IMG/VR virus record: IMGVR_UViG_3300040801_002061
Coordinates: 1-27,213 of that record
From: a virus
Strand: one strand, 5' to 3'
Length of the DNA stretch: 27,213 bases
Shown here piece after piece: positions 6,445 through 22,657 of this stretch (its first letter is position 1; each line of letters starts with the position of its first letter). The notes under the pieces were generated by a model. That model did no database searches. It was not told where the DNA came from and saw only the letters and a list, made by a program, of their open reading frames with translations. Both the position numbers and the translations under genes were made by a program.

Positions 6445-6750
6445 TTAATCAAAAGTATTAATTATTTTGATCCCGTTTTTCTTCAACTCTTTAATAGCCG
6501 TTGTATAATTGTCTTTGTCTATATTATATATGATAGGAGAATTACCAACGGGATATCCTTTTGTTGAGAAAACAATCTTTTTCTTTCTAAGAATCTTTTC
6601 TGCTTTCTTATAATCTTCTCTTGAAACTGAAAAACTTTTATCCGGTTTAAATGATGGGGTTCTATCAGTTACAATATCACCAGTGTCTTTAATAAACTTA
6701 GAAAGATGAGGAGGAAGAGCCTCAGTAATAAAATCTTTGAATTTTTTCAT
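6445..6750 (-). CDS. Putative capsid-targeted internal protein, 101 aa
   Basis: The first residues, MKKFKDFITEA, match the capsid-targeting sequence of T4 internal proteins (MKTYQEFIAE type) nearly position by position, including I8-x-E10, the pattern cleaved by the gp21-type prohead protease. Removal would leave a basic ~91-residue protein of two similar small alpha/beta units (YKKAEKILRKKKIVFST and YTTAIKELKKNGIKIINTF). The mature family is not recognised. If the signal works, the protein is packed in the head and injected with DNA. The ribosome binding site is weak, and a hairpin lies just upstream. Confidence 0.65.
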   Translation of the reverse strand: MKKFKDFITEALPPHLSKFIKDTGDIVTDRTPSFKPDKSFSVSREDYKKAEKILRKKKIVFSTKGYPVGNSPIIYNIDKDNYTTAIKELKKNGIKIINTFD

Positions 6751-6767
6751 TAGATATAATTGTTAAT

Positions 6768-6814
6768 GGCTATTATAGTATACAAATGCATTACAATTGG
6801 TTACTATAATAGCC
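6768..6814 (-). terminator. 13-bp hairpin after the Ig-repeat gene
   Basis: GGCTATTATAGTA (6768-6780) pairs perfectly with TACTATAATAGCC (6802-6814) across a 21-base loop. It begins ten bases after the stop of the Ig-repeat gene. The T-run on the minus-strand side is poor (ATTAACAATT), so it could be a weak terminator, an RNA-end stabiliser or an operator rather than a strong terminator. Confidence 0.55.
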
Positions 6815-6823
6815 TTTATGATG

Positions 6824-7681
6824 TTATACAGTTTCCATTACAATTGCTGGTTGTACATAATCAGCAGGGAAATTCAAATCAGCAAGATTACCAGCGGCAT
6901 CTTCAAGAGTGGTTGCCGCACCCATTGCTAGAACAGTTAAAACAGTCAATTCACCATCAACAGCATCGGTTGCTGGACCAGTGAATGTAAGTGTAGTTGT
7001 ACCGTCACCTGAAGCAAGAGGAATTTGAATTACAGTTTCAGCGGCATCTTCAACTTCTAGAAAAACTCCTGCAACACCATTTAATGTTACTGCTTCAGAA
7101 TATTCAACTTCAAAAGTCAAATCATCTGTATTAGCATAAGTTCCATCTGTTTCATTTGTTACTGTATCAATTACAGCAGTTGACATGACAATTGTTGGTT
7201 GAACATAGTCAGCCGGGAAATCATCATCAGACCAGTTACCAGCCGCATCAAGAATTGTTCCACCGTTAAGTTGAATTTCTTCTACTACAACCAAATCACC
7301 GTCAGCCATTCCTGTAACATCACCTGTAAAAACAAGATCAGTTGTTCCAGAACCTGATACATAAGGAATCTGATAAGCATCTCCAGCCTCAGTATACACT
7401 TCAAGATAAGGAGTACCACCAGTTGTTGTTACTGTTACTGCCTCATTAAATTCTACAGTAAATGAAAGAGAAGTTGGCGCAGAATAAGTTCCATCAGCGT
7501 GATTGGTTACTGATGCTACAACTGCCGCGGCATTACCAATATCTTTTAATGTGTGTATTAGTTCTTCTTGTCCATTAGGATGTCTCAGATACCATCCACC
7601 AGGTTTCTTTACTACATCACTTTTGTTTGTTTTATTGTTTCCGTCTGTGTACATCCATGTTGCAGGGATAGTCCTTGACAT
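6824..7681 (-). CDS. Virion-type protein with two Ig-like repeats
   Basis: A 285-residue protein. Residues 1-50 form a leader domain (ATWMYTDGN...GGWYLRHPNGQEEL) of the sort that anchors decoration or fibre proteins to the particle. Residues about 54-168 and 170-285 are two copies of a bacterial Ig-like domain (DGTYxxxxxLxFxVExxEAV..., DAAGN, FPADYVQPxIVM). The repeats have a period of about 116 residues and are also visible in the DNA. There is no signal peptide, so it is a phage-particle component rather than a secreted protein. The role may resemble T4 Hoc (capsid decoration, weak adhesion). GAGG precedes the ATG. It sits between two capsid-targeting-type genes and is followed by a hairpin. 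Confidence 0.75.
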   Translation of the reverse strand: MSRTIPATWMYTDGNNKTNKSDVVKKPGGWYLRHPNGQEELIHTLKDIGNAAAVVASVTNHADGTYSAPTSLSFTVEFNEAVTVTTTGGTPYLEVYTEAGDAYQIPYVSGSGTTDLVFTGDVTGMADGDLVVVEEIQLNGGTILDAAGNWSDDDFPADYVQPTIVMSTAVIDTVTNETDGTYANTDDLTFEVEYSEAVTLNGVAGVFLEVEDAAETVIQIPLASGDGTTTLTFTGPATDAVDGELTVLTVLAMGAATTLEDAAGNLADLNFPADYVQPAIVMETV

Positions 7682-7753
7682 TTATTTTACCTCTATTTTG
7701 TTGTTTTTAATTAAATTGAAAATGTTCACTGTTATTTATGCTTTACAAATGTT

Positions 7754-8611
7754 TCACCAATCTACATTCTTCGGAACATATTCCTTGATCTTGGCTCTGA
7801 TTTCTTTATCTAATTCTTTTGTACTTTTAATAGTCTGACCTGCTTTTTTGACATAAAAGTAATTAGATGTTTTGATATATTGTCCGCCCTTTCCAGATTT
7901 CACAAGTTCCGAATCAATACCAATTTTATTGAAAGCAAATACAATATCCCCATCAAGATATTTTTTAAGATCATTGCCCATATTTATAATGTCATTCATT
8001 GTTTGAGAAACACCACGATGAGTGTTGACCAAAATTTCAGTGGGAACTGTTCTACTTCTCGAAAGATTCTGACTCTTAGCAACCTCTATATCATTAATGA
8101 TCCAAACTATATGAATTTTATCTTTTTCATAACCTAACTTTTCAAGATCTCTTGAAATACTTGCTAGTTTTGTTAGATCCCGAAGAGTAACGTCAAAAAT
8201 AATATTAGGCTTTCGATCTGGTGCTGAAACAAGTACTGATTGATAAAATGTAGATTTTTGTTTTTTATCTAATTTCAATACAGACCCGATAAGATCATGA
8301 AGAAGTGCGACATTATCAGGGTTCTTCAATGAATCTGTTTTTCTTAGTTCAGCAAAATCCATTCCGGTTTCATCTTTCACAATCTTTTCTATTTTATCGG
8401 AACGTATTGCTAGGCTTTTAAGTTCATCAACATCAAAACTCATTCCCTCTAAGCCGACTAGGTTTTTCTTCACAAATCCTTTCCCGCTTCCGGCACCACC
8501 GGCAAGAATGACAACATTGCCGAATTTCGGATAGGCTTTCCCTCCGAAAGTGATCAACTTTTCATTTAGTTCTTCTAGAACCTCATTAATGTATTCTTTG
8601 TACGATTTCAT
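7754..8611 (-). CDS. P-loop kinase with capsid-targeting N-terminus
   Basis: A 285-residue protein. Residues 1-10 (MKSYKEYINE) match the T4-type capsid-targeting sequence with I8-x-E10. A P-loop nucleotide kinase domain follows: Walker A GGAGSGKG (38-45) after a beta strand (NVVILA), then SFDVDELKSLA, FDVTLRD and VWIINDIEVAKSQNLSRSR, the layout of zeta-toxin or polynucleotide-kinase-like enzymes. The C-terminal ~50 residues are basic. It would phosphorylate a small molecule or nucleic acid end; the substrate is not evident. If packaged, the enzyme would act immediately after injection. AAAGGTGAC precedes the ATG. An inverted repeat with an extended -10 lies 40-60 bases upstream. Confidence 0.75.
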   Translation of the reverse strand: MKSYKEYINEVLEELNEKLITFGGKAYPKFGNVVILAGGAGSGKGFVKKNLVGLEGMSFDVDELKSLAIRSDKIEKIVKDETGMDFAELRKTDSLKNPDNVALLHDLIGSVLKLDKKQKSTFYQSVLVSAPDRKPNIIFDVTLRDLTKLASISRDLEKLGYEKDKIHIVWIINDIEVAKSQNLSRSRTVPTEILVNTHRGVSQTMNDIINMGNDLKKYLDGDIVFAFNKIGIDSELVKSGKGGQYIKTSNYFYVKKAGQTIKSTKELDKEIRAKIKEYVPKNVDW

Positions 8612-8648
8612 GTCACCTTTATTTGTTGATTTTTATTTTATATAACTA

Positions 8649-8670
8649 TTATATCATATTTATGATATAA
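8649..8670 (-). promoter_or_regulatory. 9-bp inverted repeat with -10-like sequence
   Basis: TTATATCAT (8649-8657) and ATGATATAA (8662-8670) are perfect inverted copies separated by four bases. On the minus strand the element carries TGATATAAT, an extended -10, and also CATAAATA, one base off the T4 late-promoter box. It lies 38-59 bases upstream of the kinase gene and just after a terminator, so it is a good place for a promoter or operator. No good -35 is visible. Confidence 0.5.
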
Positions 8671-8688
8671 AGAAAACAACAAAATGAA

Positions 8689-8719
8689 AAAGGTCAAATC
8701 TTTTCAAGAAATGACCTTT
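8689..8719 (-). terminator. Rho-independent-type terminator
   Basis: On the minus strand AAAGGTCA...TGACCTTT forms an 8-bp stem, extended by a T-T internal mismatch and an inner TCTT/AAGA stem around a GAA loop. It is followed by TTCATTTTGTTG. It begins 20 bases after the stop of the gene ending at 8739 and closes the long unit of glycosyltransferase and HD genes. Confidence 0.75.
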
Positions 8720-8738
8720 AATATATTAGATTGTTATG

Positions 8739-9143
8739 TTATTCTCCTGGCTCAGTTATATTTGGAGGGCCCTCAGGAGGCAAATCTTCCATTTGTTTAG
8801 AAGTATAATTTTTAGAAACTCCAGTTCCATCAATACTTTCAATTTCAATTGTCATGAATCTACCGGAATAGATCTTGTGAACATCTTTTGCAATTTCGTC
8901 AGCGATACTTTCACAAGATTTATTTTCATAAGAATATTGATTGATGATTTCACTAATGAATTTCTGAAAACCTTTCAAATCAATTTCATTGTTATTAAAA
9001 ATCTGAAGATAAACTTTTAATGTAAAGGCACAAGGTTTAGTTTTTCCGTCTTTTGTTTCTTTTTGATAACTTTCAAATGTTTGTTTAACAGTAATAAATT
9101 GGACACCGGTGTACAAACCATAATAATATTTGTTATTTTCCAT
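8739..9143 (-). CDS. Hypothetical protein, 134 aa
   Basis: No firm family. The body alternates beta strands and helices (FTLKVYLQIF, LKGFQKFISEII, CESIADEIAKDVHKI, FMTIEIES). It weakly recalls the T-fold of pterin/queuosine enzymes, but without their His/Cys active-site residues. The C-terminus is proline-rich (DLPPEGPPNITEPGE). A strong AAGGAGG lies six bases before the ATG. It is the last gene before the terminator at 8689-8719. Confidence 0.6.
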   Translation of the reverse strand: MENNKYYYGLYTGVQFITVKQTFESYQKETKDGKTKPCAFTLKVYLQIFNNNEIDLKGFQKFISEIINQYSYENKSCESIADEIAKDVHKIYSGRFMTIEIESIDGTGVSKNYTSKQMEDLPPEGPPNITEPGE

Positions 9144-9152
9144 ATGTCCTCC

Positions 9153-9386
9153 TTAGAACATTTTAAAATGTACTTCTTCCATAACTCTATAAACTTGCAT
9201 ACCGGCATAAAATTCTCCAGAGTAAAGAAATTCTCTATTATCTATACCTGAATAATTTTCAATTATACTTTTCAAGCGTGCATATTCAGTTGTTCCTAGA
9301 TAAAGAAATAACGGCGATTTGCCCTCTCTTTTCATGAAATCAACCTTTGCTTCTACAATTCTGGCTTTGATATTTTTTGTTTCCAT
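9153..9386 (-). CDS. Small hypothetical protein, 77 aa
   Basis: The start is placed at ATG 9384-9386 (METKNIKAR), with AAAGGAG immediately upstream. A longer version would run into the HD gene. The segment SPLFLYLGTTEYARLKSII resembles a short motif (LYLGxxEYxxLK) seen in small phage proteins of unknown role. No catalytic signature. It follows the HD phosphohydrolase gene with an 11-bp gap. Confidence 0.6.
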   Translation of the reverse strand: METKNIKARIVEAKVDFMKREGKSPLFLYLGTTEYARLKSIIENYSGIDNREFLYSGEFYAGMQVYRVMEEVHFKMF

Positions 9387-9396
9387 CTTTCTCCTT

Positions 9397-10026
9397 TTAC
9401 CATATATTAATATCTCTGTTGAACTCAACATTAATCATATCTTGAAAAATTATTCCAGCATCTTCCATTGTTAAACAAGAATCTGAAAGAACCCATCTTC
9501 CAAATTGGAATGTAGGAATTTCAACTCCTTTAATGCATTCCCACTCCAATCTAGAACCTCCCATGATTTCTGGATGATTCTTTTCATAAGCCAGCATTGA
9601 CAGATCCATTTTCTTTATGATATCTTTAACAGTAATGAATGCGGTAACTAAACCGTGAATGGGAATAATTTCATCTTTACCATAAGTCGCATACGGAATC
9701 ACATCATATTTACTATAAATCTCAAATAAAATATTGTCTTCAATTAGATTTATCTCTGAAGACAAATTTTTAACAGGAGAAGGAATATCTCCAATGTATG
9801 CTTCAACAGCATCATGTAACAATGCTATTTTAGAAAATTCTGGAAATGCGAGGGACATCCTTATAGAATGTTCAGCAACAGAATAGAACTTTTTTGTATT
9901 GCCGGCATATCTACAGATTTTCGGAAGACATGCCACTATATCTTCTAATATGATATCTGTTTTCTTCACATCCTCAGCCCAGAATGGTAATCCAGAATGA
10001 GTTTGCATATAATCACCCTTTCTCAT
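9397..10026 (-). CDS. HD-domain phosphohydrolase, YfbR-like
   Basis: A 209-residue HD-superfamily enzyme. H53 (VAEHSIRMS) and the motif LLHDAVEAYIGDIPSPVK (70-87, with H71 D72 and E75) match 5'-deoxynucleotidases of the YfbR type, which use a divalent metal to remove the phosphate from deoxynucleoside monophosphates. The D residue that completes the HD site is probably in FITVKD. In a phage it could adjust the dNMP pool or remove an unwanted nucleotide, which fits a base-modification setting beside two glycosyltransferases. Start ATG at 10024-10026 with AAAGGAG five bases upstream. Confidence 0.8.
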   Translation of the reverse strand: MRKGDYMQTHSGLPFWAEDVKKTDIILEDIVACLPKICRYAGNTKKFYSVAEHSIRMSLAFPEFSKIALLHDAVEAYIGDIPSPVKNLSSEINLIEDNILFEIYSKYDVIPYATYGKDEIIPIHGLVTAFITVKDIIKKMDLSMLAYEKNHPEIMGGSRLEWECIKGVEIPTFQFGRWVLSDSCLTMEDAGIIFQDMINVEFNRDINIW

Positions 10027-10036
10027 AATCTCTCCT

Positions 10037-10990
10037 TTATTTAATAAATTTACTTAAATTGTGTTCTTTCTTTACTTTTCTCCAATTCTTGCCTAAAACA
10101 AATTCAACCTCTTTTTCTAACAAAGATCCTTTTTTGATTCTTTCCCAAAAATCAGTTTTAATTTTTGCTGATTTGTATGAAGATTCAAAAAAATGTTGGA
10201 TAAAATAAGATTGCTCAAATATTTGATCTATACTTGGCAATAAGTTACCGAACAAATGTGTTTTACCATCAAATTTTGTCGGAGCATCAAGAGAATAACA
10301 ATTACCAGCCGCTTTCCAAGCAGGTATTGGACAACATTGAATGGGTTTCATTACTTGAACATTATCATTAGAGTTAGCAATATTCTTCATCTCCCACATT
10401 ATATAATTCCATCCTTTGGATGATTTCTTCGGTGATTCTGATAGTGATTGCTGAATTTTTGTACAAAGATCATTAATATCATTCTTTATACTTGAATGAA
10501 CTTTGAAAGGAAATACTGATAATGCTCTTCCATCCCATGTTCCGTCAGTTTTGAAGAAAGGATGTTTTGGTCCGAATTTGATCTGCATCACACCAGTTCG
10601 TTTAGTAATAGATGTTGAACAAAAAGCCTCTATATTTGGTAAGGGATTTATTGAAACAGCATCCATATCTAAAACAACACCTTCTTTCTCATTAGCAAGT
10701 CTAAACCGAACTAAATCTGATATATGAGCAACGGAGTGTCCTTTCCTCATTGATTCATGTGCATCTTTAGACGGAAAAAATTCATCAGCATTTAAAACTT
10801 TAATCTCATTTGGTATAACTATTTTATCAGAAAATCTCTGATAAGTCAAGAGAAAAATGTTTTTATATAATTTTATATGAGAATTTAAAGCCAATTCATG
10901 AAGATATGATAAATCAATAGTTTTTTCAAGCCATTGTTCATAAGATTCATCGGCTTGAACTTGACTACTCCAGAATAGAATTATATTCAT
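10037..10990 (-). CDS. Glycosyltransferase with DxD motif
   Basis: A 317-residue enzyme of the capsular-polysaccharide / GT32-like group. SVAHISDLVRFRLANEKEG (86-104) leads to the metal-binding LDMDA (107-111, D108/D110). The N-terminus (MNIILFWSSQ) is the first Rossmann-type strand. It transfers a sugar from a nucleotide-sugar donor; the acceptor is unknown. Its ATG overlaps the stop of the TAGT-type glycosyltransferase gene (ATGA), so the two are translated together and may build one disaccharide on DNA or on a virion protein. Confidence 0.8.
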   Translation of the reverse strand: MNIILFWSSQVQADESYEQWLEKTIDLSYLHELALNSHIKLYKNIFLLTYQRFSDKIVIPNEIKVLNADEFFPSKDAHESMRKGHSVAHISDLVRFRLANEKEGVVLDMDAVSINPLPNIEAFCSTSITKRTGVMQIKFGPKHPFFKTDGTWDGRALSVFPFKVHSSIKNDINDLCTKIQQSLSESPKKSSKGWNYIMWEMKNIANSNDNVQVMKPIQCCPIPAWKAAGNCYSLDAPTKFDGKTHLFGNLLPSIDQIFEQSYFIQHFFESSYKSAKIKTDFWERIKKGSLLEKEVEFVLGKNWRKVKKEHNLSKFIK

Positions 10991-11958
10991 TTCTTTCCTT
11001 TGTTTTGAAAATACTCTTCATCTTTCTTTTTGAAGTAAGCATTTAACTCATCAAAGTCTTTGAATGTTTTATAAACCATTCCGTAATTGTTTATAAGTTG
11101 TTTAACTTTAAAATCTTTTTTTAGTTTCAGTTTATTCTTTTTAAACGGTTCATAATCAACATAATGATGCCACCTATCATATTTCCAAACAACTCTTGCC
11201 ACATCTGGATGCATTGCAACAAGCATTGCAGATTTTTTAATAGTTCCTTCTGGATTGTACTTCATTTTTCTCCATTCTTCTTCAGATAAAGAACCTTCTT
11301 TATGATAAAATTCATCAGTGTTGCCTCCTTTTAAAGCCTGTGTAGCAACTTTACCTTGAAGAAATACATTAAATTGAACGGTACAATCACCATCTTTTAG
11401 AACATTTAAACATAAATCTGTATCTTCATTATATCTTCCTCTCCAGCGATGTCTACATGAATTATCAATCAAAAGACAAGAATAAATTCTGGTATTCTTA
11501 ACATAAGCAGGTCTCGCGTCTGCTTCGGGAAGAAATCCTCTATACTGGGGACCAGCAATAAGAACATTTTCATACCGATCAACAAAATCTTCCATTACTC
11601 TAAAACAAACACCAGTTTCAACTCTAATTCTCTCATTCTTATGTACTCTATAGAAATCAAGAAGATTGTCATCCATAACCCAATGTCTTTTATGACCGTG
11701 TTCTATTGAATGTTCCCAACACCAGTTTCTGGCTCTTCCCGGACCATCACCGTGATTGGAAAAAGGAAGAATTAAGAGTGAAGCAAACTCTTTTAAGTCG
11801 AACTTTTCAAGCGCTTCTATGTAATTTTCTTCATCTTGAGGTTCTATAGCGATGAAATGAGGAACATGCATTCTTCTAAGGGTTTTAGACGTTATCATTG
11901 ATTCATGCCGACCTTTAGAAATGATATAAACCGGATATCTTGGATTAGTGCATTTCAT
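10987..11958 (-). CDS. TET-associated-type glycosyltransferase (TAGT-like)
   Basis: A 323-residue GT-A enzyme. The start is taken at ATG 11956-11958 (MKCTNPRYPVYI): GAGG is nine bases upstream and the stop of the previous gene adjoins. YPVYIISKGR, the LPFSNHGDGPGRARNWCW region, HWVMDDN (about 93-98) and RYNEDTDLCLNVL match, from memory, the phage TET-associated glycosyltransferase family, which glycosylates hydroxymethylated bases in phages with TET/JBP-like dioxygenases. No such dioxygenase lies in this window, so it must lie elsewhere or the acceptor differs. It stands in the same operon as a second glycosyltransferase, a nucleotidyltransferase and an HD hydrolase. Confidence 0.78.
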   Translation of the reverse strand: MKCTNPRYPVYIISKGRHESMITSKTLRRMHVPHFIAIEPQDEENYIEALEKFDLKEFASLLILPFSNHGDGPGRARNWCWEHSIEHGHKRHWVMDDNLLDFYRVHKNERIRVETGVCFRVMEDFVDRYENVLIAGPQYRGFLPEADARPAYVKNTRIYSCLLIDNSCRHRWRGRYNEDTDLCLNVLKDGDCTVQFNVFLQGKVATQALKGGNTDEFYHKEGSLSEEEWRKMKYNPEGTIKKSAMLVAMHPDVARVVWKYDRWHHYVDYEPFKKNKLKLKKDFKVKQLINNYGMVYKTFKDFDELNAYFKKKDEEYFQNKGKK

Positions 11959-11959
11959 A

Positions 11960-12283
11960 TTAATCTTCCTCAACCCACCGTCTCAAAGACTTGACATCTT
12001 TTTTTAGTTTCGGATACCAGATGCTTTTTGATTTAGTAGTTAGTTTCTGATCAACCATTTTAGCAAATTCTTGGAGATCTTCATCATTTCTAAATCTTAC
12101 AATTATTTTAGCAAAATCCTCTTTAGTGGGTTGATCAAATTCTGGCATATCAACCCAATGTGTTTCCCAGTTGTCATTTTCTGCCATTTTTTCTTCATGA
12201 GACTTATCTCTAAAAGCCGCAAGTGACGGCTTCTTTTTCCCGGCTAAATCCAAACAATTGTCATATTCGGTTTTTTCTTTCAT
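11960..12283 (-). CDS. Hypothetical protein next to TAGT-like gene
   Basis: A 107-residue protein. The C-terminal two thirds (WETHWVDMPEF, IIVRFRNDEDLQEFAKMV, SKSIWYPKL) form one compact alpha/beta unit that I recall seeing in phages beside base-modification genes, but I cannot name a family. A short basic N-terminus precedes it. AGGAG precedes the ATG by eight bases. The stop is followed two bases later by the TAGT-like start, so the two are coupled. A helper role for DNA modification is inferred from position only. Confidence 0.6.
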   Translation of the reverse strand: MKEKTEYDNCLDLAGKKKPSLAAFRDKSHEEKMAENDNWETHWVDMPEFDQPTKEDFAKIIVRFRNDEDLQEFAKMVDQKLTTKSKSIWYPKLKKDVKSLRRWVEED

Positions 12284-12291
12284 CTATACTC

Positions 12292-12765
12292 CTATAGGTT
12301 GTTCTTGAAAAATTCAAAAAATCTTATTCTTTTGTCTTTGTCGTCGGTGATATCACCAAACACTCTCATTTTATGCAACACTTTCATTGCTTTTGTTGCT
12401 TTTTTGTACTTATAGAAACTTTCTTTGTCATGAAAGAAAAGAAAATTTATAATCCTGTTTTTGTTTCTTGCATAATAGGACATAAACCCTTCTACCTCTT
12501 CATTGTAATAAATGCTTCTGTACAACAAAGATCCGTCTCCAACACATTCATGAATTAATGTATTGACATCCGGGGTATAAAGCACTGCTATATCAATATC
12601 AGCGGGATCCGTTTTAGAATACACTGAAGAACCAAAAACAAATGATACGGATAAACTCATAAATTCTTTTATGGTATCATCGGACATCTCCGTAGATTTG
12701 AACAATTCATTTTGAAGTTCTTCAAATGTTGTCAACGTGGTTACGTCATATTTATTTTCACTCAT
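12292..12765 (-). CDS. Pol-beta-fold nucleotidyltransferase
   Basis: A 157-residue protein with FGSSVYSKTDPADIDIAVLY (44-63). The GS (45-46) and DxD (56-58) pair is the catalytic signature of minimal nucleotidyltransferases of the polymerase-beta superfamily. The rest is helical and basic. Such proteins add NMP groups to proteins, RNA or small molecules, and some are antitoxin partners; the substrate here is unknown. GGAG precedes the ATG, which overlaps the previous stop (ATGA). Confidence 0.75.
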   Translation of the reverse strand: MSENKYDVTTLTTFEELQNELFKSTEMSDDTIKEFMSLSVSFVFGSSVYSKTDPADIDIAVLYTPDVNTLIHECVGDGSLLYRSIYYNEEVEGFMSYYARNKNRIINFLFFHDKESFYKYKKATKAMKVLHKMRVFGDITDDKDKRIRFFEFFKNNL

Positions 12766-13376: not shown

Positions 13377-13421
13377 AATAACTCCAAAGTCATAATTAAA
13401 TTTTTAAATTCATTATTAATG

Positions 13422-13450
13422 ATTATACAACACATAATAAAAGAAGTCAA
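13422..13450 (-). promoter_or_regulatory. Sigma70-type promoter
   Basis: TTGACT (13445-13450), 17 bases, TATAAT (13422-13427) on the minus strand, about 46 bases before the gene starting at 13376. The -35 is preceded by the same AAAAAGTG element as in the promoters at 161-188 and 16571-16598. Confidence 0.78.
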
Positions 13451-13460
13451 CACTTTTTAT

Positions 13461-15430: not shown

Positions 15431-15481
15431 AATAACCCTCTTTTAAATTTGTCTTAATCTTTATTATCTTTATTATAATGA

Positions 15482-15510: not shown

Positions 15511-15539
15511 CAAACAAATAAATGAAGACAGCCTTAATT

Positions 15540-16508
15540 TTACTTCAGAACCACTCCCTGACCTTTACAATGAGGACAATCGACAAGCGGCTCATTGATA
15601 GTGGTAATGATATCATTCAGAAGAGTTTCAACTTTCTCTTTAAGATCACGGTGATTTTTTCCGACAATACCATCAATTGGAGTGTAGTTGTTATAGCTTC
15701 TCTGTTTAGTGGTCATTTCAAAACATTTCACTGTTCTAGAAGAAATGTATGTTTTGTTATATTTAGGAGTGGCATAAGACTTACCATTAGATTTTAAAAT
15801 CTCTGTTACTTTTTCAAAGGGATCGGCTAAATCAATAATTTTATGAACTTCAAAACAAAAATCATAGTCTGAAGTGATCCGGGCAACTTTAGGATCAATG
15901 TTTTGTTTAACATACTCTCTAACAATACCATAAACTTGTTCTGAAGTTAATGCACAAGGCAGAACTGGAGCCATGATGTCAGGGAACATAATCTTATCAA
16001 TTTCTTGCCGCAGAAGGTTGTTTTGTGTAATTGTGATAGTAGTTCTGTCCCGTTTTGCTCTGAAAGCGAACTTCTCTTCTGGAATCTCTTCAATTTCTTG
16101 AAGAACAACCAGGTCGAAATCAAGTTCTTCCTTAATAGGATCTTGTTTGTCTGATTTCAGTTCATAAAGAGATTCAAATGGTTTCAGATCTTCTCTCCAA
16201 GCACAATACTCATCGCCTTCTTCATCTTCAAATGTAGTTACAACTTCATCCCTTGGCATGACTTCAGGAAGATCAATTTTTGCAAGTGTTGCAACATCTT
16301 TGATTTCATACCTAAAGTTTGTATTTGGACGAGGTCTAATAACTGTTACAGTCTTAGGTTCGTCAGATACTTTGTACCAGCCTGAAGCAAATGTCGCTTC
16401 AAGATTATTATCGTTAATGAGAATATTATGTGCTGATACACCAACAAATTTAATGAACCAGCATTTGTCAGTTTTTATTGCTTGAATTTGAATTTTTGAA
16501 TCACTCAT
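15540..16508 (-). CDS. Conserved hypothetical phage protein, 322 aa
   Basis: A 322-residue acidic protein of unknown role. The N-terminal ~80 residues are beta-rich (FIKFVGVSAHNILIND...ASGWYKVSDEP). The middle is acidic, a helical region with VREYVKQNIDPKVARI follows, and the C-terminus ends in CPHCKGQGVV, half a zinc-ribbon or DnaJ-like CxxCxGxG element. Since only one such motif exists, zinc binding would need a second partner or a dimer. It is the first gene after the promoter repeat at 16550-16608, with GAGG seven bases before the ATG. Its position next to the helicase suggests an early gene. Confidence 0.6.
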   Translation of the reverse strand: MSDSKIQIQAIKTDKCWFIKFVGVSAHNILINDNNLEATFASGWYKVSDEPKTVTVIRPRPNTNFRYEIKDVATLAKIDLPEVMPRDEVVTTFEDEEGDEYCAWREDLKPFESLYELKSDKQDPIKEELDFDLVVLQEIEEIPEEKFAFRAKRDRTTITITQNNLLRQEIDKIMFPDIMAPVLPCALTSEQVYGIVREYVKQNIDPKVARITSDYDFCFEVHKIIDLADPFEKVTEILKSNGKSYATPKYNKTYISSRTVKCFEMTTKQRSYNNYTPIDGIVGKNHRDLKEKVETLLNDIITTINEPLVDCPHCKGQGVVLK

Positions 16509-16549
16509 TTGTCACCTCATTCATAATTAAGTTTTTGTTCTTTTGTGTC

Positions 16550-16608
16550 TCAATCTTTATTTTATGGTTCATTATAACATATTAGGATATAATGTCAACA
16601 CTTTTTTT
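16550..16608 (-). repeat. 59-bp dispersed promoter repeat, copy 2
   Basis: Second copy of the element at 140-198, with two mismatches in 59. Here its upstream part overlaps the last codons and stop of the small membrane-protein gene ending at 16582. Confidence 0.9.
16571..16598 (-). promoter_or_regulatory. Sigma70-type promoter in the repeat
   Basis: TTGACA (16593-16598), 16 bases, TATAAT (16571-16576), with an extended -10 TG and an A-tract before the -35. It drives the 322-residue gene starting at 16508. The -35 lies within the coding end of the gene that stops at 16582. Confidence 0.82.
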
Positions 16609-16815
16609 CTTTTTATTTCTGTAAATAGAGATTAAATCTATAATAATGGTGGCTATAGCCAAAGAAATAAGTCCGTATTGTTTAGTAATATATGAATAAT
16701 ACAACCAACAAAATGCATTTCCTATGTGTAGCCACCATGCTATATTTGATCCCTTCATCCAACCCAAATTCGCATTAGATAGTAATGTTGTAACACTTAA
16801 AAACCAATCAAACAT
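16582..16815 (-). CDS. Small membrane protein, PnuC-like fragment
   Basis: A 77-residue protein with two or three hydrophobic helices (about residues 2-18, 26-43 and 46-66: IAWWLHIGNAFCWLYYSYI, GLISLAIATIIIDLISIY) and a basic tail. The pattern of Trp/Asn/Tyr in the helices resembles one repeat unit of PnuC-type nicotinamide riboside transporters, though a full PnuC is about three times longer. If related, it would be a reduced half-transporter; this is weak. GAGG precedes the ATG. It follows the helicase gene. Confidence 0.6.
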   Translation of the reverse strand: MFDWFLSVTTLLSNANLGWMKGSNIAWWLHIGNAFCWLYYSYITKQYGLISLAIATIIIDLISIYRNKKKKSVDIIS

Positions 16816-16830
16816 AATAACCTCATAATT

Positions 16831-18291
16831 CTAGAAATTTATTTTAAATTCATTATTTTTAGGATTTGCTCCAGGTTTAACTTGTTCTAAAAATCTATCA
16901 CCTGTACTTTTATCAAATAACGGTTTATCTTCATCATTCTTTTTATCTTTCTCCTTTACTTTATGCGGTTCTAGATAATTAGAAAAGTTTTCAACATCTT
17001 CGGCTTCACCGAATATCATTTTTTCTCTTTGATATGTCATCATGAACCGTTTCTTTCCGGGTACATTGATGTTGTCATATCTAGATTTTAATTGTTTACA
17101 TAACATCAATCCTTGCTCCGCTATTTCTTCCGGAGCCATCATACCCATCATAAAATCTACTGTATCATTGATACCTTTAGATTCACCCGTATCTTGCATA
17201 CCAATATCAGAGGATTCAATTGTTCCTCTGTTACCTTGAACAGCAGAAGCACCGATAAAATTATATTTACCTGCTAAACCTCTAAACTCTTCAGCAATTG
17301 ATTTTACAAAAAGATAAGTTCCTTTATTAAGGGAAACCCTTCTTGACAAGCAAATGTTCAAGTAATCCAAACACACTATATCAGGAACAAACCCTTTCTT
17401 CATCTTCAATTCGCGAAGTAAGGCCTCAACATGTCCCATATGGGCAGAAGATGTTGGATATTCCTTGATTATAATCTTACCAAGACCCTTCTTTTTTAGT
17501 CTGGTAATTTTATCGGCAAATTGGATGACCTCAAGTTTTTCAAGATCATCCATTGTAGTATCAAGAAGATTTGCATCAATTCTCTGAGCAATCTTTTCCT
17601 CAGCCATTTCCATTGATATGTACAGAACATTATAACCTTGAGTCGCCATCTCTGCGGCATAATGACAAAGGAATGCTGATTTTCCTACTCCAGTAGAAGC
17701 CAGAATAAGATTTATTGTTTTTCTTTCCCAACCTCCTTTTGTTATCTTATTAAGAATTCCTGTAAGAAACGGAAGTTTGTCCTCTTTTCTTTTCAGTCTT
17801 TCAAATCTTTCTACGGCGTCTTCTACATAATCAGTACCAATATGATCATCAAAAGAAACGGCTAATGCTTCTTGAATCAAGTCAGGAATACTGCTTATTG
17901 GTTCATCAGATCCTCCTTTATCATAAATATTGACCGATTTGACAAGTGCATTATATAAAGCCTTCTGTGAACAAAAATCTTCTGTACAATCTAGAATCCA
18001 TTCATATTGAACATCTTTCTTGGATTGAATATTTGTTCTTACATAATCAAATGCTTCCTTCTCTAATTCTTCAGACAAAGAAGCATCTTTTATGTAAACA
18101 TTTAAAATCTCGGAATTAGAAGGTTTTTCATAAACTGTATAATGCTTTTCATATGCTTTGTAAATAACCTTTTCGACTCCTTCAAAGAAATCCTCTTGAA
18201 GATGAGGAAATACTTTGAAGAAGTATTGGTCATTATTAGAAAGTTGATTAAATATAAGTGAAGCATCAAAATTTTTAACAACTTTGGACAT
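16831..18291 (-). CDS. 41: Replicative DNA helicase, T4 gp41-like
   Basis: A 486-residue hexameric helicase of the DnaB/gp41 family that unwinds the fork 5' to 3' and works with the gp61-type primase. The N-terminal ~150 residues are the helical DnaB-N-like domain. The RecA-like motor starts near residue 170 with GGWERKTINLILAST and Walker A ASTGVGKSA (198-206). Walker B is DIVCLDYLNI (about 303-312), and a DnaB-type SAVQGNRG loop follows. T4 gp41 is about 475 residues. AAAGGAG precedes the ATG. It follows the gp40-like and uvsX genes, which is the T4 order. Confidence 0.92.
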   Translation of the reverse strand: MSKVVKNFDASLIFNQLSNNDQYFFKVFPHLQEDFFEGVEKVIYKAYEKHYTVYEKPSNSEILNVYIKDASLSEELEKEAFDYVRTNIQSKKDVQYEWILDCTEDFCSQKALYNALVKSVNIYDKGGSDEPISSIPDLIQEALAVSFDDHIGTDYVEDAVERFERLKRKEDKLPFLTGILNKITKGGWERKTINLILASTGVGKSAFLCHYAAEMATQGYNVLYISMEMAEEKIAQRIDANLLDTTMDDLEKLEVIQFADKITRLKKKGLGKIIIKEYPTSSAHMGHVEALLRELKMKKGFVPDIVCLDYLNICLSRRVSLNKGTYLFVKSIAEEFRGLAGKYNFIGASAVQGNRGTIESSDIGMQDTGESKGINDTVDFMMGMMAPEEIAEQGLMLCKQLKSRYDNINVPGKKRFMMTYQREKMIFGEAEDVENFSNYLEPHKVKEKDKKNDEDKPLFDKSTGDRFLEQVKPGANPKNNEFKINF

Positions 18292-18600
18292 TTACTCTCC
18301 TTTTGGATCTAATGATGCTGGTACTTTTATCTTCATATCTTCTTTTAATGCAGTATCAAGTTTATTAGTAAAATCATCTTGTATGATTGTAGAAATTAAA
18401 CCGTTACATGCTTTGTGAAAAACTTCCGGATTAATAAAATCCCATGATGCTTCAAGTTTTTTTTCATCATCTTCTTTGATAAGAATTTTATATTTTATAC
18501 CATCAAATACACCACCTTTGATTTCAAAAATTAAAGATTCCTTTTCGGCAACACTTACGTCTATTTTATCTAAAAGAACAATATTTGGTAAATTACTCAT
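18292..18600 (-). CDS. gp40-position protein, 102 aa
   Basis: The start is placed at ATG 18598-18600 (MSNLPNIVLLDKI), inside the last codons of uvsX, with AGGGAG upstream. Longer readings would overlap uvsX by almost 100 bases. The protein is a small alpha/beta unit (SLIFEIKGGVFDGIKYKILI...DMKIKVPASLD). T4 has gene 40 (about 114 residues, a head vertex/assembly factor) in exactly this place between uvsX and 41. The assignment is from position and size, not from a recognised motif. Confidence 0.6.
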   Translation of the reverse strand: MSNLPNIVLLDKIDVSVAEKESLIFEIKGGVFDGIKYKILIKEDDEKKLEASWDFINPEVFHKACNGLISTIIQDDFTNKLDTALKEDMKIKVPASLDPKGE

Positions 18601-19681
18601 CTTCTGATATCTCCCTTTCTTCTGTTTCTTCAACATCTGGCACTGGAAATGCGGAGCCGTATTTGAATTTTTTGCCAACGTATTCATCAATTGCTTTCAT
18701 TATATCTTCAGTAAAGAATTTCTCAGGATTTTCATAGATGTTTTTAGAATAAACCTTTGCACCATCTTGTTCTGGTCCTAATTCAATTCTTGTTCCCGCT
18801 TTCTTCCATATTCCTGCTTCAATAGCGAATTCAACCATTCCATGCCAGCGGGAAAGACCGTCTTGATATCTGATTACAGTTTCAGCCTTTGAATTTTCTC
18901 TGGTAAGTCTTCCCTTATCTAATCTACATTTGACAACGGCACCGGTGATATCTGTTCCGCTTTTCTCTTTCGATTTAGTCAACATCATTACAGTACTTGC
19001 TGAATAAACGGGTCCTGAACCACCTGATTGGACTTGTTTAGAAAACATTTCCATAGTACCGTATGTATGATTAGTAAACAGCAATGGAACTTTGAACTTA
19101 CCCATTTTGAGAGTCAAAACTCTAAAAGCCGCTTTGACTAATTGGGCTCGAGTCATATCTCTGGTATCTTTTCCGTCTTGAATGTCTTCTATTTCTTTTA
19201 CAGTTGACAGTTGGCCGAGAGAATCAAGAACCATTAGAATGGGTGTTCTTTCTTGCGCTGGAATTGCAGAATAGTTATTAAGGATAACAAGAGCCTGATG
19301 TCTGAATTGCTGAACTGTTTCAATTGGCATAATAAGAACTCTTTTAATATCAATTCCGAATTCTAACATCATATTTTTAGTCAAAGCGGATTCTGACTCA
19401 AACATAAACACAACAGCCCTCGGATCTTTATCAAGAAACAATTTAACAGCGGTAAGAGCAAAGAAACTCTTACCAACACCAGAAGGTCCAGCCAATGCAG
19501 TTATTTTGTTGTTGGCATAACCACCATAGATTGATCCACTTAGTAAAGCATTGATAGCATAAGAACCAGAATCAATAAATCCTTCATAGTCTCCTGCAAC
19601 AATACCGTTTTCTACAATTGAAGCATACTCATTAAGTTTAAAAATTTCTTTTGCAAAATCAAATGAATTGTTTTTACTCAT
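18593..19681 (-). CDS. uvsX: UvsX RecA-like recombinase
   Basis: A 362-residue recombinase that coats single-stranded DNA and catalyses strand exchange in recombination-dependent replication. Walker A GPSGVGKS (65-72), Walker B ILMVLDSLG (about 147-155) and the KVPLLFTNHTYGTMEMF region with QVQSGGSGPVYSAST (about 200-230) are as in T4 UvsX (about 391 residues). The C-terminus is acidic (VEETEEREISEDE), as usual in this family. AAAGGAG precedes the ATG. It is served by its own promoter at 19797-19825. Confidence 0.93.
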   Translation of the reverse strand: MSKNNSFDFAKEIFKLNEYASIVENGIVAGDYEGFIDSGSYAINALLSGSIYGGYANNKITALAGPSGVGKSFFALTAVKLFLDKDPRAVVFMFESESALTKNMMLEFGIDIKRVLIMPIETVQQFRHQALVILNNYSAIPAQERTPILMVLDSLGQLSTVKEIEDIQDGKDTRDMTRAQLVKAAFRVLTLKMGKFKVPLLFTNHTYGTMEMFSKQVQSGGSGPVYSASTVMMLTKSKEKSGTDITGAVVKCRLDKGRLTRENSKAETVIRYQDGLSRWHGMVEFAIEAGIWKKAGTRIELGPEQDGAKVYSKNIYENPEKFFTEDIMKAIDEYVGKKFKYGSAFPVPDVEETEEREISEDE

Positions 19682-19776
19682 TTACTCTCCTTTAAATTTT
19701 AAGTCTAAATATTTGTCGAATTAATACTGATTTTGTTCTTAATTCTCATTTTAAGTCGATTTATGTCGGAAAACAA

Positions 19777-19820
19777 AAATCCCTTTGATAATATACAGTA
19801 TATACTATTCAAAGGGATTT
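19777..19820 (-). terminator. Strong terminator after the PEP-CTERM gene
   Basis: On the minus strand AAATCCCTTTGA and TCAAAGGGATTT form a perfect 12-bp stem (arms 19809-19820 and 19777-19788) directly followed by TTTTTGTTTT. It lies about 22 bases after the stop of the PEP-CTERM gene. This is the best Rho-independent terminator in the window. Confidence 0.85.
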
Positions 19821-19825
19821 GTCAA
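19797..19825 (-). promoter_or_regulatory. uvsX promoter overlapping the terminator
   Basis: TTGACA (19820-19825), 17 bases, TATACT (19797-19802). The -35 sits at the foot of the terminator stem and the -10 in its loop. A transcript starting here would begin inside the loop and carry only the descending arm, so it would not form the hairpin. The rest of the 160-base gap to uvsX is AT-rich leader with no other feature seen. Confidence 0.75.
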
Positions 19826-19842
19826 TACAAAAAATCAAAAGA

Positions 19843-20562
19843 TTATTTTTTTCTTTTTCTTAAAAAACTGCTTATTCCTACTAGTCCAGAACCAAAAAGC
19901 AAAATAGATGTTGGTTCTGGCACAGGGGTTGCATTAACCGTTGAAAAGTTGTCTAGACCGAAACCGTCATTAGTGTTTGATACATTCCAGATTATTTCTG
20001 AAATATATTCATCACCAAAATCTATGCCAACAAAAAAACCGGTACCATTCAGTTGATTAGGATCTATGAAAGCAAACAATCCACCACTAGCAATTGATGT
20101 TAATGCTCCTACATCACCAGGATCAGTTATATAGAAAAAGAGATTAGTAAATGTATTCGGTTTTACATTCAAAGTAATCTGAGTTATATCAGCAGAATCG
20201 AGATAATTAGTTTTTACTCCGTTTTCAGTTATATCCCTTCTTCCATTAGCATCAAAATCTCTTAGTTGAAATTTCGGTTCATTAGAATCTTTATATGCTG
20301 TTGATCCAGTTCCGGGAGATGCTCCAGCATTGGTAAATGTTCCCACATTGGTTTCTAGACTTGACGACCATCCCGGCGTCAGTGATTCAAAATCTTCTAC
20401 AAGAGAAGCGGAATTTCCTATGTTAAAAACCCAATTATTAATTTGAGCACCTTGAGTACTGAGATTGAAAACATCAATACTTGCGGCATTAGTAACTGAA
20501 GAAACAGTTACTAAAAAAAATAATACTAATAAAGCACCTAATGTACTGATAAAATTTTTCAT
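19843..20562 (-). CDS. Secreted PEP-CTERM sorted protein
   Basis: A 239-residue exported protein. Residues 1-27 are a Sec signal peptide (MKNF..., hydrophobic core LGALLVLFFLVTV, cleavage near TNA|AS). The C-terminus is a full PEP-CTERM tail: VPEP (214-217), a hydrophobic helix (SILLFGSGLVGISSFL) and a basic end (RKRKK). Exosortase (EpsH-type) in the host recognises such tails and sends the protein to the surface or exopolysaccharide. The body has a beta-sandwich look (LVEDFESLTPGWSSS, NVKPNTFTNLFFYITDPGD, FFVGIDFGDEYISEIIW), similar to many host PEP-CTERM proteins. GAGGAG precedes the ATG. It is bounded by a terminator and is probably acquired from a host. Confidence 0.88.
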   Translation of the reverse strand: MKNFISTLGALLVLFFLVTVSSVTNAASIDVFNLSTQGAQINNWVFNIGNSASLVEDFESLTPGWSSSLETNVGTFTNAGASPGTGSTAYKDSNEPKFQLRDFDANGRRDITENGVKTNYLDSADITQITLNVKPNTFTNLFFYITDPGDVGALTSIASGGLFAFIDPNQLNGTGFFVGIDFGDEYISEIIWNVSNTNDGFGLDNFSTVNATPVPEPTSILLFGSGLVGISSFLRKRKK

Positions 20563-20581
20563 ACATAACTCCTCATGTATT

Positions 20582-20827
20582 TTAAATTTTTTTACCTGGC
20601 GCTACCACAGATTTGTAATCGGTGAATTTGAATAAATCATCAATTGAACCAACCGATTTTTTGACTTCTTCATGACTAACAACTTCATTATCGGTTTCTG
20701 AGTAATACGCCTTTTGTTTTTTCTTTAAAATAGACCAAGCCTTTTTGTTCAAAGACTTGTCTTTGATATCATCAATATTAATTGTCTTCATCTTTGCTTC
20801 GGTCATCAATTCTTTAAATGTCTTCAT
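20582..20827 (-). CDS. Putative capsid-targeted internal protein, 81 aa
   Basis: It begins MKTFKELMTEA, matching the T4 capsid-targeting pattern (MKTYQEFIAE type), with Glu10 at the expected protease site and Met in place of Ile8. The remaining ~70 residues are small, basic and of no known family (KAWSILKKKQKAYYSETDNE). AAGGG precedes the ATG. It follows three similar genes in the cluster 20582-22088. Confidence 0.62.
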   Translation of the reverse strand: MKTFKELMTEAKMKTINIDDIKDKSLNKKAWSILKKKQKAYYSETDNEVVSHEEVKKSVGSIDDLFKFTDYKSVVAPGKKI

Positions 20828-21370
20828 TTATTTACCCTTAAAATAAAGTTTCTTTCCGCCGATTTCGATGTATTGTCCTTTTTCATCAAATTCAACTTCC
20901 ATTGCTATAATAGCGGCTTCGGGAGAAGCAACAAGATCTTTCTTGATTTGCTTATCACCTAGTGTCTTAATAACAGAAGAAATAAATTTCTTATCATTTA
21001 CGGTGTAATTACCTTTTCTTGCTGTTGATACTTCTGCTTTAAGGTCATATGAGACTTTGTTTCCATCGAACTTGACATTATGTGGAGTAATGACCATTTC
21101 ATCATAATCATCGAATGATTCATTAACATTTTTGTCCATTGTATGAATATTATCTTTACCACTTTTATGCTTAATTCTTATATTGGGTGTGGCTCCGTCT
21201 TTGTGAAAATAAACAGATTCATAACCTCCCTTTGAATTTTTTTCGATAGTTTTCAATCGATAACCATCTTTCAGGAGTTCGCCATGTTCTTTTCTAAATT
21301 TGGGATCACGCTTTATATTTATATTTTTATTTTCATTAAGGTCTTCGGAAAATTTCTTAAAAGTTTTCAT
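20828..21370 (-). CDS. Putative capsid-targeted internal protein, 180 aa
   Basis: It begins MKTFKKFSEDLNENK, with the same aromatic/basic spacing as the neighbouring capsid-targeting N-termini. A protease site LNE (11-13) is possible. The body is basic and beta-rich (YESVYFHKDGATPNIRIKHK; VKFDGNKVSYDLKAEVSTARKG). The second half (residues about 90-180) may be a separate domain. No family recognised. AAAGGA precedes the ATG. Confidence 0.6.
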   Translation of the reverse strand: MKTFKKFSEDLNENKNINIKRDPKFRKEHGELLKDGYRLKTIEKNSKGGYESVYFHKDGATPNIRIKHKSGKDNIHTMDKNVNESFDDYDEMVITPHNVKFDGNKVSYDLKAEVSTARKGNYTVNDKKFISSVIKTLGDKQIKKDLVASPEAAIIAMEVEFDEKGQYIEIGGKKLYFKGK

Positions 21371-21396
21371 TAAATATCCTTTATATTAATAATGGG

Positions 21397-21792
21397 TTAA
21401 ACTGTAGTTTTCATCCATGCTTTGGCTTCACTTTTAGAATCAAAGAATGTAATAACATTTATCGGACCAGTTGAGACAATAAAAGCACCGACTTTTTTGG
21501 GTTTATTTTTTCCTCCCCACACTGAAAGATCATCATAAACATCATACATCGGCAAATCAAACATCAATGCATTGCCTTTCTTTTGGACAGGTTTTATTGT
21601 CTTGATTGCTTTGAGAATCATTCGGAGTACAAGTTGATCCTCATTCGGATCTCCTTTCTTATCTGTCAGATATGTTTTAGTCAATGGAATAGATGTTCCT
21701 GATCCCACATCATAAGCAATCCAAAGACTACCTTTTGTTTTATAAATCTTATACTCCATTGCCTCATTAACAAAATCTTTATACTTTTTCAT
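21397..21792 (-). CDS. Putative capsid-targeted internal protein, 131 aa
   Basis: It begins MKKYKDFVNEA, a good fit to the capsid-targeting pattern, with V8-x-E10 at the cleavage position. The body is a compact alpha/beta protein (YKIYKTKGSLWIAYDVGSG, GAFIVSTGPINVITFFDSK, AKAWMKTTV) and is not assigned to a family. AAAGGA precedes the ATG. The start adjoins the stop of the next gene upstream (TAATG). Confidence 0.63.
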   Translation of the reverse strand: MKKYKDFVNEAMEYKIYKTKGSLWIAYDVGSGTSIPLTKTYLTDKKGDPNEDQLVLRMILKAIKTIKPVQKKGNALMFDLPMYDVYDDLSVWGGKNKPKKVGAFIVSTGPINVITFFDSKSEAKAWMKTTV

Positions 21793-22088
21793 TAATTATC
21801 CTTTACTTTATTTTTAATTATGCTTAATGAAGGCAATCCTTTAAATTTTAATATTCGATTAGCCTTGCTTAGTATTTCAAAATTTGAATCTCCTATAATT
21901 TCATTCAAACCTTGCTGGCTTACAATCTTATCAAATTGTTTATTTAATTTAGCAAATTGATCCAGCAAATTCTTATAAGTCTTATATTCATACACAGAAA
22001 CATTTTCATCATTTAAAACTTTTTCGATTGTTGATTTTTTGCCCTCATTTACACAAATATCTTCTGTTAATTTCTTGAATGACTTCAC
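21792..22088 (-). CDS. Putative capsid-targeted internal protein, 98 aa
   Basis: It begins with GTG (22086-22088) giving MKSFKKLTEDICVNEG, the shared N-terminal pattern, with a possible LTE (7-9) protease site. The rest is helical and basic (IEKVLNDENVSVYEYKTYKN, LRILKFKGLPSL). The GTG overlaps the stop of the nucleotidylyltransferase gene (TAGTG), and AAAGGA lies upstream. Unknown function. Confidence 0.58.
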   Translation of the reverse strand: MKSFKKLTEDICVNEGKKSTIEKVLNDENVSVYEYKTYKNLLDQFAKLNKQFDKIVSQQGLNEIIGDSNFEILSKANRILKFKGLPSLSIIKNKVKDN

Positions 22089-22657
22089 TAGAGATTTTCC
22101 TTTATTTCTTCAAATATTATTCTTGCTGTTTGATCATCAGCAACAGATGGCAACCATTGTCTGAATTTATCAAAATTGTCATTCAGTGCAAAGTTCCGCA
22201 TATCTGTTCCGGACTCTTCAGATTTTCTTTCACCTGCATTCTTTATATTTATATTATAGAATAAATAAGTTCCTTTGTCAACAAGTGTTTTCACTTTCTC
22301 TTTAAACTCTTCATAACGGTCATCGCCAACAATCATAGTAACATTTTTATAACCACGGTCTGACAAATTCTTCAGAACATCAAAGGGTGTTTTAATATTA
22401 ATTTCTCTAGGAATAACAGCCTCTGGAAACAACTTCCTTAGTATTGTTATCTTGAAATCATAAGACAAAGGATTCTTTTTTCTATCTTGCCGCTGTGAAG
22501 TATATATCAAAGGAATAGAATCAGTTTCTTTTGCTTCTCTGATCACTGTATTAATGAGTTTTTCATGACCAGTGGTCAATCCCTGGAATCTACCGAAAGT
22601 AAAAACTATACTCTTTTTTGATCTTTCTCTTTTGAGATATTCTTTAAACGAAAGCAT
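22088..22657 (-). CDS. Nucleotidylyltransferase (NMNAT/cytidylyltransferase-like)
   Basis: A 189-residue enzyme of the HxGH nucleotidylyltransferase superfamily. VFTFGRFQGLTTGHEKLI has the T-x-G-H form at 28-31, and SGTDMRNFAL (about 146-155) is the second signature (ISSTxxR type). VTMIVGDDRYEEF lies between. It would join NMP to a phosphorylated substrate, as in NMN or nicotinate mononucleotide adenylylation or cytidylyl transfer; the sequence does not fix which. The first residues (MLSFKEYLKRERS) are a weaker version of the capsid-targeting pattern. Proteins of this type with a capsid-targeting start are common in T4-like phages from memory. The ribosome binding site is weak (GGTG). Confidence 0.8.
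   Translation of the reverse strand: MLSFKEYLKRERSKKSIVFTFGRFQGLTTGHEKLINTVIREAKETDSIPLIYTSQRQDRKKNPLSYDFKITILRKLFPEAVIPREINIKTPFDVLKNLSDRGYKNVTMIVGDDRYEEFKEKVKTLVDKGTYLFYNINIKNAGERKSEESGTDMRNFALNDNFDKFRQWLPSVADDQTARIIFEEIKENL

What the first reader, a model, noticed from the sequence alone, without database searches (positions are those of the whole stretch)
6445..22657. A set of proteins with T4-type capsid-targeting N-termini
Six genes start with the same pattern: MKKFKDFITEA (6445-6750), MKSYKEYINE (7754-8611), MKTFKELMTEA (20582-20827), MKTFKKFSED (20828-21370), MKKYKDFVNEA (21397-21792) and MKSFKKLTED (21792-22088). MLSFKEYLKRE (22088-22657) is weaker. The bodies are unrelated to one another, so the shared part behaves as a signal. 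T4 internal proteins carry MKTYQEFIAE and are cut after (L/I)xE by the gp21 protease. I infer that these are cargo loaded in the prohead and injected with the genome, including at least one enzyme. Four of the genes are consecutive, which looks like an effector island.
Basis: partly seen in the sequence, partly recalled or inferred. Interest (0 to 1): 0.88.

Follow-up and report, generated by a model that had tools for sequence, protein, structure and literature searches.

The report
Phage cargo proteins tagged for packaging
A T4-like environmental phage puts the same short address tag, known from phage T4 to load proteins into the virus head, on at least six unrelated proteins and probably a seventh; related marine phages carry the tag on enzymes already found in their particles, so the tag likely marks proteins shipped with the phage DNA.

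Summary
Six genes start MK[KST][FY]K (0.03 expected); a seventh (22088-22657) carries a good variant. Bodies are unrelated, all seven proteins are basic, and the N-termini are conserved as protein, not DNA. Residues 4 and 7, which carry targeting in T4 IPIII, fit in all seven.

Relatives support a detachable capsid-targeting sequence. Homologues of the NMNAT-like and DUF6267 proteins occur with and without the tag, and linkers vary from none to over 100 residues. Ten zeta-like kinases keep an invariant L-x-E, the gp21 site, just before the fold. A matrix trained only on T4 and this window ranks the S-CREM2 proteome so that 7 of the top 8 are published virion proteins (expected 1.9), including SAM hydrolase, an APH-like kinase and NMNAT. 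NMNATs found in S-SM1 and S-SCSM1 virions carry it too.

Most likely these are prohead-core cargo, partly trimmed by a gp21-type protease and ejected with DNA. Packaging is well supported by homology; cleavage is likely for some; injection and effector function are untested. The contig lacks the head module, so the protease was seen only in relatives. The mechanism is known from T4; the cargo set and its link to cyanophage virion enzymes appear new.

The parts
6445..6750 (-). 101-aa basic protein, N-terminus MKKFKDFITE|A (canonical CTS and (I/L)xE site); orphan body
   Evidence: no phage or IMG/VR homologue; sits beside the 6063-6452/5316-6062 gene pair as HTVC008M gp139 (MKSFKDFQNVNE) does
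7754..8611 (-). 285-aa zeta-toxin-like P-loop kinase, CTS MKSYKEYINE, second site LNE17|KLITFG directly before the fold
   Evidence: PF06414 E=6e-9, phrog_5268 E=1.5e-109, homologues in 209 phage records; L-x-E invariant in 10 aligned homologues
20582..20827 (-). 81-aa basic orphan protein, CTS MKTFKELMTE|A
20828..21370 (-). 180-aa basic orphan protein, CTS MKTFKKFSED (Asp10; possible cleavage LNE13)
21397..21792 (-). 131-aa basic orphan protein, CTS MKKYKDFVNE|A
   Evidence: the one IMG/VR hit is a DNA polymerase, spurious
21792..22088 (-). 98-aa basic orphan protein, GTG start, CTS-like MKSFKKLTED (Asp10; possible later site VNE15)
22088..22657 (-). 189-aa NMNAT/cytidylyltransferase-like protein, CTS variant MLSFKEYLKRE, body starts near residue 17 (FTFGRFQG)
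   Evidence: PF01467 27.0 bits, cut-off 21; phrog_3041 E=2e-47; homologues are virion proteins in S-CREM2, S-SCSM1 and S-SM1
22673..23803 (-). DUF6267 protein, partner gene of the NMNAT-like gene; no CTS in this phage but CTS in about half of its relatives
   Evidence: PF19782 E=5e-69; alignment A1; fused to the NMNAT domain in L037

Best explanation
The seven N-termini are T4-type capsid-targeting sequences (CTS). During head assembly the roughly 10-residue peptide, through its aromatic residue 4 and hydrophobic residue 7, recruits each protein into the scaffolding core of the prohead. A gp21-type protease then trims those with a fitting (L/I/V)xE site, and the basic mature proteins stay in the head with the DNA and leave with it at infection. 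Cargo includes a zeta-like P-loop kinase, an NMNAT-like nucleotidyltransferase and small basic orphans that vary between phages like T4 IPs. Shown: motif, its statistics, its detachability, and its association with virion proteins in relatives. Inferred: core binding, cleavage, ejection, and roles in host take-over or counter-defence.
For: Motif and statistics. T4 positive control. Residues 4 and 7 fit the published T4 targeting residues in 7 of 7. Detachable: NMNAT homologues carry the tag in 15 of 18, with the body motif anywhere from residue 18 to 144, and three lack it; DUF6267 is about half and half. Zeta homologues keep the tag and an invariant L-x-E before the fold despite divergent linkers. 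Out-of-sample test on the S-CREM2 proteome: 7 of top 8 ranked proteins are in virions, p=2e-4; 6 of 28 non-structural virion proteins against 2 of 167 undetected above threshold, p=1.2e-4. NMNATs of S-SM1 (MKKFSAFLNEA) and S-SCSM1 (MKSFLQFLKEA), both virion-detected, carry the tag. S-CRM01 has five consecutive tagged genes including a kinase reported from virions. Gp21 protease in five of the six relatives' contigs over 50 kb; three gp23 propeptides there end LxE|A or LxE|V. All seven proteins basic, like T4 IPs.
Against: No virion data for this phage, and no protease or scaffold in the contig. Two proteins have Asp10, and the NMNAT-like protein has no (L/I)xE near its N-terminus. Some untagged proteins of the S-SCSM1 island are in virions, so the tag is not the only route. 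In Morganella phage MP1 only the top one of three tagged proteins was detected, which is not significant. The S-CREM2 authors could not exclude co-purification.
Confidence: 0.78

Rival explanations
1. The proteins are packaged by the tag but act in the particle, as basic DNA-neutralising or core-filling internal proteins, and are not effectors that work in the new host.
For: All seven are basic. T4 IP lysines contact DNA phosphate (PMC3012670). Bodies of the small ones are orphans without predicted activity.
Against: Two are enzyme-like (zeta-like kinase, NMNAT). Tagged cyanophage virion proteins include SAM hydrolase and kinases. T4 IPI and Alt are ejected and act in the host.
Confidence: 0.2
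2. The shared N-terminus is a short amphipathic docking peptide for something else, such as the replisome, membrane or another phage protein, and its presence in virion proteins is indirect.
For: The island lies beside uvsX and gp41 in the window, and next to gp41 in L002/L008. Not every tagged protein of MP1 or S-CREM2 was detected in virions.
Against: Identity with the T4 CTS at the residues known to matter, enrichment in virion proteomes, and gp21-type sites next to the tag.
Confidence: 0.08
3. The similarity is chance, AT-rich lysine bias at starts, or recent tandem duplication of a 5' segment.
For: MK starts are common in AT-rich phages; four genes are tandem.
Against: 6 observed against 0.03 expected; codons differ at least as much as codon usage predicts; the same motif recurs in unrelated families of other phages.
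Confidence: 0.02

Closest known systems
T4 internal proteins IPI, IPII, IPIII (CTS, Mullaney and Black 1996, as reviewed in PMC9026906)
   Same: Position and length of the tag, aromatic residue 4, hydrophobic residue 7, xxE near residue 10, small basic variable bodies, several per phage
   Different: Cargo includes a zeta-like kinase and an NMNAT-like enzyme; genes form an island beside uvsX, gp41 and DUF6267, while T4 has them near e and 57B; two have Asp10; no body homology to T4 IPs was seen
T4 Alt (ADP-ribosyltransferase packaged in the core)
   Same: Enzyme carried in the head and processed by gp21
   Different: Alt has another N-terminus (ITE6) and is also trimmed at its C-terminus (PMC5694885)
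Phage P1 DarB and its N-terminal packaging signal (PMC9024508)
   Same: Large protein loaded in the head by a short N-terminal signal
   Different: No shared consensus among Dar proteins, another phage group, no separate scaffold
Virion-associated enzymes of T4-like cyanophages (S-CREM2, S-SCSM1, S-SM1, S-CRM01)
   Same: Homologous NMNAT-like protein, same N-terminal tag, neighbouring virion genes near gp41 in S-SCSM1 and S-SM1
   Different: Published reports note their presence in virions without naming a targeting signal in the passages read here

Membership tests
T4-type CTS cargo (internal proteins) | N-terminal peptide of about 10 residues with aromatic residue 4 and hydrophobic residue 7 | tested here: met
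   7 of 7; residues from mutational work reviewed in PMC9026906
T4-type CTS cargo (internal proteins) | gp21 site (L/I)xE at the end of the tag | tested here: inconclusive
   Strict at Glu10 in 2 of 7, Val or Met at P3 in 2, Asp10 in 2, none in the NMNAT-like protein; invariant L-x-E before the zeta fold
T4-type CTS cargo (internal proteins) | Unrelated, basic mature bodies | tested here: met
T4-type CTS cargo (internal proteins) | Same phage encodes gp21-type protease and core scaffold | tested here: inconclusive
   Contig is a fragment without head module; protease and gp23 present in long contigs of relatives with tagged genes
T4-type CTS cargo (internal proteins) | Protein is inside the virion | not testable with these tools
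   No proteome for this phage; homologous NMNAT and other tagged proteins are in virions of relatives
T4-type CTS cargo (internal proteins) | Ejected into the host with the DNA | not testable with these tools
   Inferred from T4 only
Zeta-toxin-like P-loop kinase (PF06414), 7754-8611 | Profile match and Walker A | tested here: met
   36 bits, cut-off 22.3; GGAGSGKG conserved apart from POP12 (GGAASGKS) and an interrupted copy in PTm1
Zeta-toxin-like P-loop kinase (PF06414), 7754-8611 | Kinase or toxin activity, antitoxin partner | not tested
   No assay; partner not searched
NMNAT/cytidylyltransferase (PF01467), 22088-22657 | Profile match above cut-off | tested here: met
   27.0 bits, cut-off 21

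The most novel reading that the evidence does not exclude
The T4 capsid-targeting tag is a general, modular loading code in the wider T4-like phages (cyanophages, pelagiphages, environmental relatives): accessory enzymes such as NMNAT, a DUF6267 protein, zeta-like and APH-like kinases and SAM hydrolase gain or lose the tag and are then shipped in the head, often from tagged-gene islands beside gp41, giving the phage a pre-made metabolic and counter-defence kit before any gene is expressed.
Probability: 0.5. Interest if true: 0.8.

Novelty: new member of a known kind. Interest (0 to 1): 0.6.

Why it matters
Enzymes such as NMNAT, kinases and SAM hydrolase keep turning up in purified cyanophage particles, and authors could not say whether they are real cargo or contaminants (PMC10665884). 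A T4-type tag on the same proteins gives a mechanism and a simple test, and lets cargo be predicted from sequence in phages that cannot be grown. It also names a zeta-like kinase family found in 209 phage records, including growable phages such as RB43, as likely packaged enzymes.

Tried and rejected
Chance and composition bias: rejected. Recent duplication of a 5' segment: disfavoured by the codon test. Homologues of the orphan proteins: none in phages at E<=0.1 with a concatenated query of all five or in IMG/VR for 20828, 6445 and 21792; the one hit for 21397 is DNA polymerase. First loose patterns on S-CREM2 had little power (Fisher p 0.03-0.14); the matrix test was run after those N-termini had been seen, but its training set holds no S-CREM2 sequence. 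Second proteome, Morganella phage MP1: top-ranked gp136 detected, next two tagged proteins not, so inconclusive. AlphaFold of the zeta-like protein with four sequences failed (pLDDT 43) and says nothing about the N-terminus. DUF6267 as a ligase-like nucleotidyltransferase: sequence motifs suggest it, but the structure search gave no significant match and the profile search none; left as a lead.

Full report
WHAT IS THERE. The window is a whole 27,213-base IMG/VR virus record with all main genes on the - strand. It holds T4-type replication genes: a gp61-like primase gene at 3779-4786, a gp41-like helicase gene at 16831-18291 (best phage hits about 45% identical) and a UvsX/RecA-like gene at 18593-19681. 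It has no gp20-gp24 head module. No close relative is in the phage collection by DNA.

THE OBSERVATION. The seven ORFs are at the stated places and start as stated. Five of the six strong starts have an AAGG-type ribosome site upstream. The string MK[KST][FY]K starts six of 46 genes against 0.03 expected; with a matrix built without window sequences the seven proteins are ranks 1 to 7 of 46, each with empirical p of 4e-4 or less. Their bodies share no similarity beyond an 11-residue match at E=0.67-0.87. Codons at shared residues agree in 29 of 61 comparisons where codon usage predicts 36.6, so the peptide, not the DNA, is conserved. All seven proteins are basic.

COMPARISON WITH T4. T4 IPII and IPIII begin MKTYQEFIAEA and IPI begins MKTFKEFTSTTTPVSTITEA. 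Mutational work reviewed in PMC9026906 places targeting in residues 4 and 7 and processing in residues 8 and 10, with Asp10 allowing targeting but not cleavage. In the window residue 4 is F or Y in seven of seven and residue 7 is F, Y or L in seven of seven. Site by site: 6445 ITE|A, 7754 INE|V plus LNE17|K, 20582 MTE|A, 21397 VNE|A, 20828 Asp10 with LNE13 later, 21792 Asp10 with LTE9 and VNE15, 22088 none. So cleavage after residue 10 is likely for some, not for all.

THE TAG IS DETACHABLE. Zeta-like kinases from RB43, KP15, POP12, Aeromonas phage 65, LPCS28, EniLVp02 and three IMG/VR contigs all begin with a variant of the tag, then a linker of different length and sequence, then an invariant L-x-E directly before the fold (LNE|KLITFG here, LDE|ALITFG in RB43, LTE|A in KP15, LIE|K in L081 and L083). 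For EniLVp02 the tagged start is an internal Met, not the annotated one. NMNAT-like homologues carry the tag in 15 of 18, with the conserved body motif located from residue 18 to residue 144, and L014, L028 and L034 lack it. DUF6267 homologues are about half with and half without; the window copy lacks it.

VIRION DATA IN RELATIVES. S-CREM2 has a published proteome with coordinates (PMC10665884 Table 3). A matrix trained on T4 IPs and the window alone ranked its 219 proteins: seven of the top eight are virion proteins (1.9 expected, p=2e-4). They are NMNAT ORF154 MKNFSSFLTEA, SAM hydrolase ORF6 MKDFDSFLEE, APH-like kinase ORF14 MKRFDAFLTEE, ORF136 MQTFSMFFSED, ORF13 MKDLHSFLTEQ, the protease ORF143 and ORF155. 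Restricted to proteins not classed as structural, 6 of 28 detected against 2 of 167 undetected pass the threshold (p=1.2e-4). ORF12 (annotated as a Cas9-like nuclease) has the same element internally (LRFASFMAEA), as do similarly placed genes in S-CRM01, S-N03, S-H34 and S-B68. NMNATs of S-SM1 (MKKFSAFLNEA; T4-GC190, detected in virions) and S-SCSM1 (MKSFLQFLKEA; detected) carry the tag, and S-SCSM1 genes 89-93 beside it are all annotated as virion proteins, though the other four lack a clear tag. A second proteome, Morganella phage MP1, is inconclusive: the best-ranked gp136 MKTFQEFINEA is detected at 59% coverage, the next two tagged proteins are not. The S-CREM2 authors warn that co-purification cannot be excluded.

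ISLANDS AND PROTEASE. Runs of tagged genes recur: six beside gp41 in L002 and several in L008, three in L047, five in S-CRM01. The gp21 family is found in the contigs of L002, L008, L037, L028 and L056; the 80-kb contig of L016 and the shorter ones have none. The same five contigs have gp23; the three gp23 propeptides that could be read end LFE|A, LNE|V and LHE|A, and T4 gp23 itself has FLTE|A.

MECHANISM AND LIMITS. The best reading is core loading by the tag, partial trimming by a gp21-type protease, and ejection with the DNA. Loading is well supported through homologues; trimming is supported by sites only; ejection and function rest on T4 precedent. The zeta-like and NMNAT-like cargo suggest actions on nucleotide or NAD metabolism or on defence, but no substrate is known, and the four small bodies near the NMNAT gene plus 6445-6750 have no assigned function.

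NOVELTY. The CTS concept and its possible use for varied cargo in T4-like phages are published. In the open library only one paper holds both 'capsid targeting' and 'cyanophage', a T4 review; subscription journals are not held, so priority cannot be claimed. The new parts are this cargo set and the link between the tag and the unexplained virion enzymes of cyanophages.

Noticed in passing
window 19843-20562 (-): Phage-encoded protein with signal peptide and PEP-CTERM sorting motif (PF07589) beside the tagged island; suggests a host with an exosortase system and is unusual for a phage.
   Followed up: no
window 22673-23803 (-): DUF6267 has invariant KxDG and EGxV residues resembling nucleotidyltransferase (ligase) motifs; the structure model (pLDDT 83) gave only weak PDB hits, several of them RNA or DNA ligases. 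Fused to the NMNAT domain in L037.
   Followed up: partly
L094:6891-8732 (Tenacibaculum phage PTm1): The zeta-like kinase gene is interrupted inside its Walker A motif by an insert that looks like an intein.
   Followed up: no
window 5316-6062 (-): N-terminal part matches phrog_18642 and the Lys/Arg-rich C-terminus ends like T4 gp68 (phrog_3503 head scaffolding, E=3e-4; T4 gp68); perhaps a head protein.
   Followed up: partly
L090:28344-29237, L118:9322-9507, L119:34806-35354: Basic proteins whose N-terminal part resembles the first residues of mature gp23 (GFTGAAAPxGPxAGYDP); two of them (S-CREM2 ORF160, S-SCSM1 ORF97) are virion-detected.
   Followed up: no
L086:8566-8796 and L105:16343-16570: The small gene beside uvsW in RB43 and MP1 begins with the tag (MKSFTEFVNEA, MKTFKEIFEQT).
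   Followed up: no
L099:3922-4473, L100:2743-2971, L101:2716-2944, L102:4638-6389: Cluster C cyanophages have a second shared N-terminal motif (SRWxxW) about 10-20 residues before an internal copy of the tag.
   Followed up: no
window 6824-7681 (-): Acidic protein of two similar repeats of about 100 residues (phrog_30287), between the zeta-like gene and 6445-6750.
   Followed up: no
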